Shown here piece after piece: positions 29,891 to 33,474 of a DNA stretch of 35,323 bases. Location: positions 1 through 35,323 of the forward strand of contig LFLC01000029.1 of assembly GCA_001543015.1 (NCBI GenBank), written 5' to 3'. This stretch comes from Nitrosopumilus sp. LS_AOA. Its GTDB lineage: Archaea > Thermoproteota > Nitrososphaeria > Nitrososphaerales > Nitrosopumilaceae. Position numbers and translations under genes: made by a program. The notes under the pieces were generated by a model. The model saw only the letters and a program-made list of their open reading frames with translations, did no database searches and was not told the origin of the DNA. The first letter of the stretch is position 1. Each line of letters begins with the position of its first letter.

Positions 29891-30637
29891 ATGACTTGGT
29901 ATTTTGATTCTCATATCCACTTGTCTGATCCTGCATATCTTTCAGATATGGAATTTATCTTAAAAGGAATGGAACATCTAAAATTAAAAGCATGTTGTGT
30001 TTCAATGGATGTTGAAAATTCTTTACAAACATTAAAACTCGCAAAAATAAATGATCTTGTTTTACCCTTTATTGGAATTCATCCTGAGTGTGCAGACGAT
30101 AATGTTGAAAAAATGATTGAGATGATTGAAGAACATCATGATATTCTTTCTGGAATTGGTGAAATAGGATTAGATCCTACTTATGATAACACTAACACAC
30201 GACAAGTTCATGTGTTTGAATCCTTATTGTCAATCGCGGAAAAATTTAACAAACCTGTTTCAATTCATTCAAGAAAAAGTCTTGATAATGTTTTTGAAAT
30301 AATGACTAGTTATAATACAAAACATGCATTACTCCATTGGTTTGATGGAAGTAAAAAACAACTTCAAAAGGCTATGGATATGGGTTTTTTTGTATCATTT
30401 GGACCTGTAATGATTTATGCAAATGACAAGCAAACTTTGTTATCTAAAACAGTTGAATCAAAAATTCTTGTTGAAACTGATGGACCTGTAAGATTTTCTA
30501 GATGTTTTGAATCAAAATCTGGACAAATCAGTTTTATTCCAAGTGTGATCTTTGCTGCAGCAAAAGTTCTTGAAAAAACATTTGATGATATGACAAATTT
30601 ACTAGAAAAAAATTCAAAATCATATCTTGGAATATAG
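29891..30637 (+). CDS. TatD-family metal-dependent hydrolase
   Basis: 248 residues, amidohydrolase-type TIM barrel. Metal-site motifs in order: DSHIHL (6-11), GIHPE, GEIGLDP, VSIHSRKS, LLHWFDG and VETDGP. TatD proteins are 3'-5' DNases/RNases or have related phosphodiesterase activity. The HWFDG (commonly HxFxG) and the end are normal. ATG at 29891 follows a short AT-rich leader. It stands beside the histone gene, from which it diverges. Confidence 0.92.
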   Translation: MTWYFDSHIHLSDPAYLSDMEFILKGMEHLKLKACCVSMDVENSLQTLKLAKINDLVLPFIGIHPECADDNVEKMIEMIEEHHDILSGIGEIGLDPTYDNTNTRQVHVFESLLSIAEKFNKPVSIHSRKSLDNVFEIMTSYNTKHALLHWFDGSKKQLQKAMDMGFFVSFGPVMIYANDKQTLLSKTVESKILVETDGPVRFSRCFESKSGQISFIPSVIFAAAKVLEKTFDDMTNLLEKNSKSYLGI

Positions 30638-30667: not shown

Positions 30668-31108
30668 GTGAATAGAATTAAGCGTCTATCCTTTGAAGCA
30701 CTTGAAGATAACAAGTCAAAATTTGGCGAGGATTTTGCTGAAAATAAAAAAGTATTAAATCAAATTTCTATCATACGATCTAAAAGCCTAAAAAATGAGA
30801 TAACAGGATACATTACAAGATTAATCAAAAAAGAAAATCGTGAAGCAAAATCCAAACGAGAACGAATTTTAGCATCACAACCTGAAGAACAAGAAGTTCG
30901 CGTGGTAACCACTAAACCAACAACATCTGAAGAAACTTCTGAAATTACAATACCTGAATCAGAACCAACAACATCTGAAGAAACTTCTGAAATTACAATA
31001 CCTGAATCAGAACCAACAGTTGTTTCTGATGAATCACCAAGTGAAGTTGTTACAGAAGCAGCACCTGCTGATGAAACACCTGAATCTACAGAAGAGAAAA
31101 CCCAATAA
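30668..31108 (+). CDS. rps17e: Ribosomal protein eS17 with long acidic C-terminal tail
   Basis: 146 residues, GTG start. Residues ~1-58 hold the eS17 core (FGEDFAENKKVLNQISI, then KSLKNEITGYITRLIKK). The remaining ~85 residues are Glu/Thr/Pro/Ser-rich and include two identical 16-residue units. Archaeal eS17 is usually about 60-70 residues, so the tail is an added feature. It mirrors the acidic N-terminal extension on uS11 in this window. Confidence 0.92.
   Translation: MNRIKRLSFEALEDNKSKFGEDFAENKKVLNQISIIRSKSLKNEITGYITRLIKKENREAKSKRERILASQPEEQEVRVVTTKPTTSEETSEITIPESEPTTSEETSEITIPESEPTVVSDESPSEVVTEAAPADETPESTEEKTQ
30917..31012 (+). repeat. Two identical 48-bp repeats in the eS17 tail
   Basis: Bases 30917-30964 and 30965-31012 are identical and encode PTTSEETSEITIPESE twice. 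A third partial start (CCAACA) follows. Recent tandem duplication within the disordered tail. Confidence 0.9.
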
Positions 31109-31148: not shown

Positions 31149-31922
31149 ATGATTTCTGTAAAATTTATTGGTGGTGCAAAAAAATCTTTTCCACAAGAAC
31201 AATTACAGATTGATAAATCTGATATATCTATTCAAGAATTAATTGATTTAATATTAAAATTAAAACCTGACAATACCCCCAACTTGGATACTAAAAATAT
31301 TTTAATTGCAATTAATGGAGTTGATTCTTCTGCATTGGATGGTGTGAATACCATGTTAAAAAATAATGATGTTGTAAGCATTATTCCTGTAATTCATGGT
31401 GGGGCATCAAAAAAACTATTTTTTGAAATAAGAAAAAAGCAAATTCAAATCATTGAGATTAAAGGTCAAACAACAATTGATGTAAAATTTATTGATAATT
31501 TGAGAAAAAAATACCCAAAAACACAACTTCAAGCAATCTCTAGTAATTTTATAATAAATAATTCTCATTTAAAAAAAATATTGAGCCTATCATTTGAATC
31601 CGAAAAAAATGATATTTTACTTTCAAAAAAACTTGAAATTGATATTCTAATGCGTTTTGCATTAACTACACAAATTTCAAAAGCAATACTTTCAGTTGGA
31701 ATAAAACCTAAAACTAATTTTATTTTAATTGTAATTGGAAATAAAAAAATATTAAATTCATTATATGCAGAATTACTACCAATATCTACAACTTTATTTT
31801 CAAAAAATAATAACTTGTTTCTCAAAAAATATTTCAAAATTACAAAAAAACAACTCGATGTAGTTTATTCTAAAACACCTTTGGAAGATATTTTAGTGGA
31901 AAAAGCAGCTATTTTACTCTGA
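31149..31922 (+). CDS. Ubiquitin-like (MoaD/ThiS-type) domain fused to a KEOPS CGI-121 domain
   Basis: 257 residues. Residues 1-85 look like a beta-grasp MoaD/ThiS/SAMP fold: a first strand ISVKFIGGAKKSF, helix SIQELIDLILKL, LIAINGVDSS, NNDVVSIIPVIHGG ending in Gly84-Gly85. Residues ~88-257 are CGI-121-like: EIDILMRFALTTQISKAILSVGIKPKTNFILIVIG matches the family core (LR.TG..QIskAi..~GIK). CGI-121 is the KEOPS subunit that binds the tRNA 3' end for t6A formation. Its t6A context is supported by sua5 two genes away. The fusion of a diGly-like ubiquitin fold to CGI-121 is unusual. The fold of the first 85 residues is inferred. Confidence 0.75.
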   Translation: MISVKFIGGAKKSFPQEQLQIDKSDISIQELIDLILKLKPDNTPNLDTKNILIAINGVDSSALDGVNTMLKNNDVVSIIPVIHGGASKKLFFEIRKKQIQIIEIKGQTTIDVKFIDNLRKKYPKTQLQAISSNFIINNSHLKKILSLSFESEKNDILLSKKLEIDILMRFALTTQISKAILSVGIKPKTNFILIVIGNKKILNSLYAELLPISTTLFSKNNNLFLKKYFKITKKQLDVVYSKTPLEDILVEKAAILL

Positions 31923-32435
31923 AATACTACGTTTAGTTTTTTCAATACTTAGTACATCTGATTTTTTTAGTATGGATATTCCTGTTTTATTTCCTAAAAT
32001 TTCAATTAAGACTATTCTATCTGGAAATTCAAGTGATACTTTATTTTTTATTTGATTTGCTATTTTTGTAATAATTTCTTTACTTGACAAATCTGAATTT
32101 CTTTTTTCTATGGAAATTCTATATGTTTCATCATCTAAAATTTGTTTAGACATTTCTGAGACTGCTTTTTCAATTTCATCAATTTGTGATTCAACAATTT
32201 TCTGAATTGGTATGATTCTTAGACAATATCTAACACTCCATGGTTCATCTAGAACCATTTCTTTGATTTTCTTTACAATTTCTATTGGATCAAGCTTTGT
32301 TTCAGCCGTCAAAATTCCTGACATGTTTGTAATTGTAATTTTTGGTTCAGAATCTCCTAAATCATCTAAAATAGACATTAGTTCTTCTTCAGTTTCAGGT
32401 TCCAAGTGTCTGGCACAGGTGATAATTAGATTCAT
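31914..32435 (-). CDS. THUMP-domain RNA-binding protein
   Basis: 173 residues. The layout MNLIITCARHLEPETEEELMSIL, ITITNMSGILTAET, then WSVRYCLRIIPIQKI, and the C-terminal TYRISIEKRNSDLSSKEIITKIAN, fits a THUMP domain with its N-terminal ferredoxin-like part, as in Tan1/THUMPD1-type proteins and tRNA-modifying enzymes. No catalytic domain is attached, so it would act as an RNA-binding adaptor. Its ATG overlaps the sua5 stop by four bases (ATGA), so it is co-translated with sua5. Its own stop overlaps the fused CGI-121 gene by nine bases. Confidence 0.82.
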   Translation of the reverse strand: MNLIITCARHLEPETEEELMSILDDLGDSEPKITITNMSGILTAETKLDPIEIVKKIKEMVLDEPWSVRYCLRIIPIQKIVESQIDEIEKAVSEMSKQILDDETYRISIEKRNSDLSSKEIITKIANQIKNKVSLEFPDRIVLIEILGNKTGISILKKSDVLSIEKTKRSISE

Positions 32436-33028
32436 GTTCTTAAGATCTCATCTTTACTCACAGAACCTTCTCGAATAATATTGACCTTTTCATTTTCTAT
32501 TTCAATAATTGTAGATTCAGAATCACTCTGAATTGTACCTCCATCAACAAAAATATCAAAATTTTGAATATTTTTAAAACATTCATCTGCATTTGTAAAT
32601 GCTTTTTGACCCGAAATATTTGCACTAGTACCAACTAGAAAATTACATTTTTTCAATAATTCTAATGTACATTTATGATTAGGAACCCTGATTGCAATTT
32701 TATCATTTAGATTTAATGATTTTTTTAATTTTTCATCTTTTAATTTTAAAATTATTGTTAATGGTCCTGGCCAAAATCTTTGTGCAATTTTTTTTGTAAA
32801 TTCATCAAAAAATACAATTTTTTCTGCAATCTCTTTTGAATATGCTAAAACTGGAAAAGGTTTTGATATATCTCTTGATTTTATCTCATAAACTTTTTTC
32901 ACTGACTCTTTGTTGTATGGATTACACCCAATTCCATATACTGTATCCGTTGGAAAAATTACAATACCTCCTTCATTAATTATTTCAAAAGCACTCTCAA
33001 TTCCTTTTTTATCACAATTTACTTTCAA
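32432..33028 (-). CDS. L-threonylcarbamoyladenylate synthase (Sua5/YrdC family)
   Basis: 198 residues, YrdC fold only (no C-terminal Sua5 domain). Signatures: FPTDTVYGIGCNP, KSRDISKPFPVL, FWPGPLTIILKL, IAIRVPNHK, and VGTSANISGQKAF. It makes threonylcarbamoyl-AMP from Thr, bicarbonate and ATP, the substrate that KEOPS transfers to A37 of ANN-decoding tRNAs. Operon: sua5-THUMP, convergent with the CGI-121 fusion gene. Confidence 0.95.
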   Translation of the reverse strand: MKVNCDKKGIESAFEIINEGGIVIFPTDTVYGIGCNPYNKESVKKVYEIKSRDISKPFPVLAYSKEIAEKIVFFDEFTKKIAQRFWPGPLTIILKLKDEKLKKSLNLNDKIAIRVPNHKCTLELLKKCNFLVGTSANISGQKAFTNADECFKNIQNFDIFVDGGTIQSDSESTIIEIENEKVNIIREGSVSKDEILRT

Positions 33029-33109: not shown

Positions 33110-33190
33110 ATGTCTTATGAAAATGGTGAAGCCGGTTTTGAAGATGATTTTGATGATGAAATAGAAGAACTTGATGAAACAGATGATTAG
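33110..33190 (+). CDS. Acidic 26-residue microprotein
   Basis: The ATG at 33110 has a TATA-like TTTTTAATA (33077-33085) about 28 bases upstream. The peptide has 13 acidic residues (FEDDFDDEIEELDETDD is its end) and no basic ones. It fills the gap between divergent sua5 and convergent wHTH copy 2, whose stop it overlaps by four bases. The promoter spacing and compact packing suggest a real gene; function unknown. Confidence 0.5.
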   Translation: MSYENGEAGFEDDFDDEIEELDETDD

Positions 33191-33474
33191 ATACTTAATC
33201 CAAAATTGTCTGCAAAATTAGTAAATGAATAATATGCTTGAAGAAATTCTCTACCGTTTTGACTAATTTTATATTTATTTGAACCCTGTGAACCATTTCG
33301 TTCTAAGAGCCCTTGTGACACTAGAGTCTTTAAAATTCTTGAAATTCTAGAATGTGAAATATTCGCTTTTCTAATTAGATAAGTTACTGTTGCTCCATCC
33401 TCATCTTGAAGATCATCTCTAGTTGTAGCTAAAATATCTCCAATAATTTTCATATGAGTTCTATATTCTGCCAT
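33187..33474 (-). CDS. Winged helix-turn-helix regulator (HTH_45/ArnR1-like), copy 2
   Basis: 95 residues, paralogue of the regulator at 24849: AEYRTHMKIIGDILATT, recognition region RKANISHSRISRILKTLVSQGLLE, wing NGSQGSNKYKISQNGREF, C-terminal helix ending ADNFGLSI. The Arg-rich third helix and short wing fit DNA binding without a ligand domain. Function unknown; this group is among the most numerous transcription factors of thaumarchaea. Confidence 0.88.
   Translation of the reverse strand: MAEYRTHMKIIGDILATTRDDLQDEDGATVTYLIRKANISHSRISRILKTLVSQGLLERNGSQGSNKYKISQNGREFLQAYYSFTNFADNFGLSI

What the first reader, a model, noticed from the sequence alone, without database searches (positions are those of the whole stretch)
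31149..31922. Ubiquitin-like domain fused to KEOPS subunit CGI-121, facing sua5
An N-terminal beta-grasp domain ending in GG at 84-85 is followed without a gap by a CGI-121-like domain, and Sua5 (first t6A step) is two genes away. A SAMP/Urm1-type fold tied to the tRNA-binding arm of KEOPS could regulate t6A synthesis, could be cut after GG by a JAMM protease to release a free modifier, or may be a fixed docking domain.
Basis: partly seen in the sequence, partly recalled or inferred. Interest (0 to 1): 0.8.

Follow-up and report, generated by a model that had tools for sequence, protein, structure and literature searches.

The report
Urm1–Cgi121 precursor with hidden diglycine
Marine ammonia-oxidising archaea make a ubiquitin-like protein and a tRNA-modification protein as one chain; the joint keeps, in every one of 121 relatives, the two glycines that normally matter only as a free end, so it is most likely a precursor cut there by a protease that is also encoded in this genome.

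Summary
ORF 31149-31922 is an Urm1/SAMP-type beta-grasp domain ending in HGG (aa 83-85), joined directly to the genome's only detected Cgi121. Profiles, an AlphaFold model and Foldseek agree.

The fusion itself is not new: Makarova & Koonin (2010) reported it as conserved in all Thaumarchaea then sequenced, next to S17.

New here:
1. It is not universal. Outside Nitrosopumilaceae the two are usually neighbouring separate genes whose Ubl mostly ends exactly at ...HGG-stop. Fusion arose about three times.
2. HGG is invariant in 121 of 121 distinct fused proteins, with 14 of 16 possible Gly-Gly codon pairs, while the sequence just after it drifts.
3. Both Ubls found in this genome are N-terminal parts of fusions (Ubl-Cgi121, Ubl-E1), yet it encodes the tRNA thiolase NcsA, which elsewhere uses a free Ubl C-terminus.
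4. It encodes a JAMM protease closest to P. furiosus JAMM1. Families where this type was not found have free-standing Ubls ending in GG.

Best reading: a precursor cut after G85 into free Urm1 and Cgi121, as in MoaX. A fixed docking domain is disfavoured. Cleavage is inferred, not shown; the JAMM association follows clades and could not be tested statistically.

The parts
31149..31403 (+). Urm1/SAMP-type beta-grasp (Ubl) domain, residues 1-85
   Evidence: Pfam ThiS and Urm1 over cut-off; fold match to Urm1 and SAMP1; only Urm1 hit in the genome
31395..31403 (+). HGG tail motif, residues 83-85; inferred cleavage after residue 85 (between 31403 and 31404)
   Evidence: Invariant in 121 of 121 distinct fused proteins, 14 different Gly-Gly codon pairs; C-terminus of most unfused homologues
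31404..31919 (+). Cgi121 domain (KEOPS subunit), residues 86-257; stop codon 31920-31922
   Evidence: Pfam and NCBIfam Cgi121 over cut-off; fold match 8up5/4ww7; only Cgi121 hit in the genome
30668..31108 (+). Ribosomal protein eS17 gene just upstream, same strand; conserved neighbour
   Evidence: Pfam Ribosomal_S17e 64 bits; seen in 99 of 103 fused loci with flanks
31914..32435 (-). Stand-alone THUMP-domain protein, convergent, overlapping the end of the fusion gene by 9 bases
   Evidence: Pfam THUMP 39 bits; seen in 102 of 103 fused loci
32432..33028 (-). Sua5/TsaC, first step of t6A synthesis; facing
   Evidence: TIGR00057 181 bits, over cut-off; seen in 93 of 103 fused loci
29891..30637 (+). 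TatD-family metal-dependent hydrolase upstream of eS17; conserved neighbour
   Evidence: Pfam TatD_DNase; seen in 93 of 103 fused loci

Best explanation
The gene encodes a two-product precursor. A JAMM/MPN+ protease of the PfJAMM1/desampylase type (G000 contig C12, 104416-104724, not in the window) cuts after Gly85. This releases (a) an 85-residue Urm1/SAMP protein with a free HGG carboxyl end, to be adenylated by the genome's E1 and used as sulfur carrier for tRNA 2-thiolation by NcsA and/or as a protein modifier, and (b) Cgi121, which joins Kae1, Bud32 and Pcc1 and holds the tRNA 3' CCA end during t6A37 synthesis. Fusion gives a 1:1 supply of both. Shown here: both domains, the invariant HGG, the older separate-gene state, the presence of JAMM, E1, NcsA and the other KEOPS subunits, and no other Ubl detected outside a fusion. 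Inferred: the cleavage itself, which protease does it, and what the released Ubl does.
For: HGG invariant in 121 distinct fused proteins (entropy 0.00 bits against 1.99 for residues 86-110), with 14 Gly-Gly codon pairs; residue after GG small in most (Ser 74, Ala 27, Thr 8). All 43 unfused homologues read keep HGG, 33 of them ending exactly there. Recurrent fusion keeping the motif each time. Only two ThiS-type domains found in the genome, both in fusions, although NcsA is present. JAMM-A nearest solved relative is P. furiosus JAMM1 by sequence and fold (rmsd 1.2), catalytic E36, H90, H92, S100, D103 invariant. Families without JAMM-A have free Ubls. Precedents: MoaX cut after Gly82 (PMC4326299), SAMP1-MoaE cut by HvJAMM1 (PMC4443979), SAMP precursors cut by CsJAMM (PMC6043591). 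Most fused genes have no start codon just after GG (85 of 121), so a separate Cgi121 could hardly come from internal initiation.
Against: No cleavage has been observed. Only about three residues separate G85 from the first Cgi121 strand in the model, and the related CsRpn11 is sensitive to the folding state of the attached protein (PMC6043591). A few fused proteins have Leu, Ile, Val, Lys, Glu or Met after GG. The JAMM-A association is confounded with ancestry: 2-3 independent contrasts. G192 is fused with no JAMM found (350 contigs); G163 has a tailed Ubl with only JAMM-B found; G083 (98% complete) has the fusion but no detectable E1. Divergent free Ubls could escape the profiles.
Confidence: 0.7

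Rival explanations
1. Fixed docking domain: the Ubl stays attached for good and serves as a binding module of KEOPS, for example to bring E1, NcsA or tRNA close; GG is only a flexible hinge.
For: Only one chain is encoded; the model is well folded with a flexible junction; some relatives (G083) have the fusion without a detectable E1.
Against: A hinge would not need an invariant HGG identical to the C-terminus of free homologues, while the residues right after it drift. Unfused sisters work as two proteins.
Confidence: 0.12
2. Regulated switch: the uncut form is a functional or inactive KEOPS subunit and the extent of cutting controls t6A and thiolation, as SAMP1 linkage inactivates MoaE until HvJAMM1 acts.
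For: SAMP1-MoaE precedent in Haloferax (PMC4443979); residual uncut MoaX in mycobacteria (PMC4326299); conserved linkage to Sua5.
Against: No sequence evidence for regulation. It is an extension of the cleavage model rather than an alternative to it.
Confidence: 0.13
3. Accident of neighbouring genes: the stop codon was lost by chance, the Ubl part is decaying and HGG is a relic.
For: The genes were adjacent before fusion, so fusion needs only loss of a stop and frame fusion.
Against: Fused proteins diverge down to 27-45% identity, yet HGG never varies while its codons do; the Ubl part as a whole is as conserved as Cgi121 (mean entropy 1.24 against 1.34).
Confidence: 0.03

Closest known systems
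Thaumarchaeal Ubl-Cgi121 fusion (Makarova & Koonin 2010, PMC2948915)
   Same: The same protein family and the same S17 neighbourhood; this is a member of it.
   Different: They called it conserved in all Thaumarchaea then available and suggested regulation by sampylation or joint turnover control; with more genomes it is split in most other families, the HGG is invariant, and processing is the better reading.
MoaX of M. tuberculosis and archaeal Ubl-MoaE fusions (PMC4326299, PMC4443979)
   Same: N-terminal sulfur-carrier Ubl with internal GG joined to a partner; cut precisely after the second Gly; needs GG.
   Different: Partner is MoaE, which uses the Ubl in the same enzyme; here the partner belongs to another tRNA modification (t6A). 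Cleavage is not yet shown here.
Eukaryotic ubiquitin-ribosomal protein fusions (from general knowledge)
   Same: Modifier made as N-terminal part of a protein of the translation apparatus and released after GG, giving 1:1 supply.
   Different: Urm1-type Ubl, different partner, independent origin, different proteases.
Caldiarchaeum SAMP precursors cut by CsJAMM (PMC6043591)
   Same: Archaeal SAMP with residues after GG, cut by a JAMM protease in vitro.
   Different: Precursors processed by CsJAMM there are SAMPs, not known to be joined to a KEOPS subunit.
Thaumarchaeal Ubl-E1 (MoaD-MoeB) fusion (PMC2948915, PMC11237513)
   Same: Second Ubl of the same genome, also N-terminal and also with an invariant internal GG.
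   Different: MoaD/SAMP1-like Ubl with AGG instead of HGG; partner is its own activating enzyme.

Membership tests
Urm1/SAMP (ThiS-type Ubl) | beta-grasp fold and family profile | tested here: met
   ThiS and Urm1 over Pfam cut-off; Foldseek to Urm1/SAMP1. Single-protein NCBIfam models (Urm1_like, SAMP1) hit below cut-off.
Urm1/SAMP (ThiS-type Ubl) | conserved Gly-Gly tail | tested here: met
   HGG in 121 of 121 fused and 43 of 43 unfused homologues
Urm1/SAMP (ThiS-type Ubl) | Gly-Gly is the C-terminus, or becomes it by processing | tested here: inconclusive
   Not C-terminal in the gene product; processing inferred only. C-terminal in 33 of 43 unfused homologues
Urm1/SAMP (ThiS-type Ubl) | adenylation/thiocarboxylation by an E1 | not testable with these tools
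   An E1 (UbaA/MoeB-like, itself fused to a Ubl) is present
Cgi121 (KEOPS subunit) | fold and family profile | tested here: met
   NF011465 170 bits, cut-off 40; Foldseek 4ww7, 8up5
Cgi121 (KEOPS subunit) | tRNA CCA-contacting residues | tested here: met
   Gln28, Gln71, Ile72, Ile76, Gly80 of MjCgi121 (PMC7718258) correspond to Q128, Q175, I176, I180, G184, kept in 117-121 of 121. Lys56/Met60 equivalents not kept; Phe21 not mapped.
Cgi121 (KEOPS subunit) | Kae1, Bud32 and Pcc1 in the same genome | tested here: met
JAMM1/desampylase (for the candidate protease JAMM-A) | JAMM catalytic motif E...HxH(x10)D and nearest relation to PfJAMM1 | tested here: met
   Invariant residues in 16 sequences; 5ld9/5lda by sequence and fold. 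NCBIfam haloarchaeal desampylase model hits below cut-off (54 of 130 bits).
JAMM1/desampylase (for the candidate protease JAMM-A) | cuts after Ubl Gly-Gly | not testable with these tools
   Needs purified proteins
Processed Ubl-fusion precursor (MoaX / ubiquitin-ribosomal type) | Gly-Gly kept at the junction in all fused members | tested here: met
Processed Ubl-fusion precursor (MoaX / ubiquitin-ribosomal type) | cleavage in the cell | not testable with these tools

The most novel reading that the evidence does not exclude
In Nitrosopumilaceae the whole detectable Ubl pool is born locked inside longer proteins (Urm1 in Cgi121, a MoaD/SAMP-like Ubl in its own E1), so one JAMM protease gates all Ubl sulfur transfer and conjugation and at the same time releases a KEOPS subunit, coupling tRNA 2-thiolation to t6A37: an independently evolved archaeal parallel of ubiquitin-ribosomal fusions.
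Probability: 0.4. Interest if true: 0.75.

Novelty: new variant of a known kind. Interest (0 to 1): 0.52.

Why it matters
If right, abundant marine archaea make their Urm1 as a fused precursor, a convergent counterpart of the eukaryotic ubiquitin-ribosomal fusions. It would tie two tRNA modification pathways (2-thiolation and t6A) through one gene product. It predicts that a JAMM protease is needed to start the Ubl pathway at all, not only to undo conjugation, which is a direct and cheap test. It also updates a 2010 report in which the fusion was thought universal in Thaumarchaea and was read mainly as regulation by sampylation or joint turnover control.

Tried and rejected
Internal initiation of Cgi121 instead of cleavage: 85 of 121 fused genes have no ATG/GTG/TTG in the 15 codons after GG, so not general. 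A second Cgi121, Urm1 or free ThiS gene that would make the fusion dispensable: none found in G000. A statistical test of fusion/tail against JAMM-A with independent pairs: only 2-3 pairs, no power. The weak LytTR hit on the Cgi121 part (below cut-off) was ignored. The split in G105 (L043), in a 90-contig assembly, may be a frameshift error and was not used as evidence. No later paper on the Ubl-Cgi121 fusion was found in the library.

Full report
What is there. The ORF at 31149-31922 (+) encodes 257 residues. Residues 1-85 are an Urm1/SAMP-like beta-grasp domain and residues 86-257 a Cgi121 domain, by Pfam and NCBIfam, by an AlphaFold2 model with mean pLDDT 91 and by Foldseek, which finds Cgi121 structures including the tRNA-bound KEOPS complex 8up5, and Urm1 and SAMP1 structures. 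The boundary is the tripeptide HGG at residues 83-85, in the least confident stretch of the model.

Known before. Makarova and Koonin reported in 2010 that a Ubl domain is fused to Cgi121 in all thaumarchaeal genomes then available, apparently cotranscribed with S17 in Nitrosopumilus, and suggested regulation of KEOPS by sampylation or coordinated function in RNA and protein turnover (PMC2948915). They also reported the Ubl-E1 fusion. I found no later study of the Cgi121 fusion in the paper library.

Distribution and origin. In a sample of 200 genomes of the class, full-length fusions occur in nearly all members of the window's family (Nitrosopumilaceae, by the named relatives), but most other families have the two as separate, usually neighbouring genes. 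In further lineages of the phylum, outside the class, the Ubl gene also lies beside cgi121. The order eS17 - Ubl - Cgi121, facing THUMP and Sua5, is conserved: of 103 fused loci with flanks, 99 show eS17, 102 THUMP and 93 Sua5; eS17 is also seen beside 33 of 39 unfused pairs. So adjacency is old and fusion is probably secondary. A tree of the joined domains needs five changes of the fused state, at least three of them forced by starred branches: the main family, members of one genus of another family (G108, G131, G135, with unfused members G120, G137, G169), and G047 (G047's ORF is cut at its start by a contig end).

The diglycine. In 121 distinct fused proteins H83, G84 and G85 never vary, with 14 of the 16 possible Gly-Gly codon pairs in use, so the residues and not the DNA are under selection. 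Mean entropy is 0.00 bits for residues 83-85 against 1.99 for residues 86-110. The residue after GG is Ser in 74, Ala in 27, Thr in 8 and something else in 12. All 43 unfused homologues read also have HGG: 33 stop exactly there and 10 carry a short tail such as GG-S, GG-CL or GG-SPKPA. In unfused relatives HGG is thus usually the C-terminus that an E1 would adenylate; in the fusion it sits mid-chain but is still invariant. In MoaX, changing the last Gly did not stop cleavage but destroyed MoaD function (PMC4326299). With CsRpn11, Gly-to-Ala changes at either Gly are still cut, the penultimate one much more slowly (PMC6043591). Invariance of both glycines therefore points to later use of the free end, not merely to protease recognition. 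This step is inference.

The rest of the pathway in this genome. Profiles find only two ThiS-type domains, both N-terminal parts of fusions: this one and a Ubl-E1 protein on contig C9 whose junction is AGG-S; there is one Urm1 hit and one Cgi121 hit. The genome has Kae1 with Bud32 close by, two Pcc1-family genes, and an NcsA/TtuA-type tRNA thiolase with its cysteine clusters. In other archaea a Ubl acts as sulfur carrier for tRNA 2-thiolation (PMC11323500). If that holds here, at least one Ubl must be released from its fusion.

The candidate protease. Two JAMM proteins are present. The first, called JAMM-A here, has P. furiosus JAMM1 (solved with SAMP2) as nearest solved relative by sequence and by fold, rmsd 1.2 over 128 columns, and its catalytic residues are invariant in 16 relatives. 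The second, JAMM-B, is a distinct type. In genomes of families f4, f7, f9, f11 and f13 where no JAMM-A was found, the Ubl ends at GG; in f7, f4 and f9 members the E1-linked Ubl is also a separate gene ending in GG beside E1. Nearly all fused or tailed Ubls occur in genomes with JAMM-A; the exceptions are G192 (350 contigs, no JAMM found) and G163 (91% complete, only JAMM-B found; its sisters have strong hits). G013 (f11) carries a third, divergent JAMM. Most f4 members were judged from weak profile scores, not from sequence. The association is confounded with ancestry: only two to three independent contrasts exist. It is consistent with the model, not proof of it.

Cgi121 looks intact. The CCA-contacting residues named for MjCgi121 (PMC7718258), Gln28, Gln71, Ile72, Ile76 and Gly80, correspond to Q128, Q175, I176, I180 and G184, conserved in 117 to 121 of 121 proteins. 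The Lys56 and Met60 equivalents are not kept, and Phe21 was not mapped.

Interpretation. The best reading is a processed precursor that yields free Urm1/SAMP and Cgi121. Precedents for the chemistry are MoaX (PMC4326299), SAMP1-MoaE cut by HvJAMM1 in vivo (PMC4443979) and SAMP precursors cut by CsJAMM in Caldiarchaeum (PMC6043591). A fixed docking domain would not need an invariant HGG. A regulated switch remains possible as an extension. Weak points: no cleavage has been observed; the linker to the first Cgi121 strand is only about three residues; a near-complete relative, G083, has the fusion without a detectable E1.

Verdict. The architecture is published. Its restricted and recurrent distribution, the invariant internal HGG, the lack of any detected free-standing Ubl in this genome and the matching protease are, as far as I could find, not. 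I file it as a new variant of a known kind, of moderate interest, with a cheap decisive test.

Noticed in passing
30668-31108 (+), repeat at 30915-31018: eS17 carries a long acidic Thr/Glu/Ser-rich C-terminal tail containing a perfect 48-base tandem repeat (2.2 copies, 100% match); the tail varies greatly in length among relatives and is longest in this family.
   Followed up: partly
G000 contig C9, Ubl-E1 gene (L112:1547-2878): The genome's other Ubl is N-terminal in an E1 protein with an internal AGG, also invariant in the relatives read; where JAMM-A was not found, Ubl and E1 are separate adjacent genes.
   Followed up: partly
31914-32435 (-): A stand-alone THUMP-domain protein faces the fusion in almost every locus (102 of 103); it may be a further tRNA-binding partner. 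Function not studied.
   Followed up: no
33187-33474 (-): Small winged-helix protein related to Sso10a chromatin proteins (43 bits, below the family cut-off of 60); a conserved neighbour within the family.
   Followed up: no
G000 contigs C10:28729-28947 and C62:14637-14858: Two Pcc1-family genes in the genome; one may be a Gon7/Pcc2-like second subunit.
   Followed up: no
L260 (G076), L259 (G067), L261 (G079), L076 (G098): In one family the Ubl runs 2-9 residues past HGG (CL, CI, CLRYDGEVE), overlapping the cgi121 start: a short-tailed state between separate and fused genes.
   Followed up: partly
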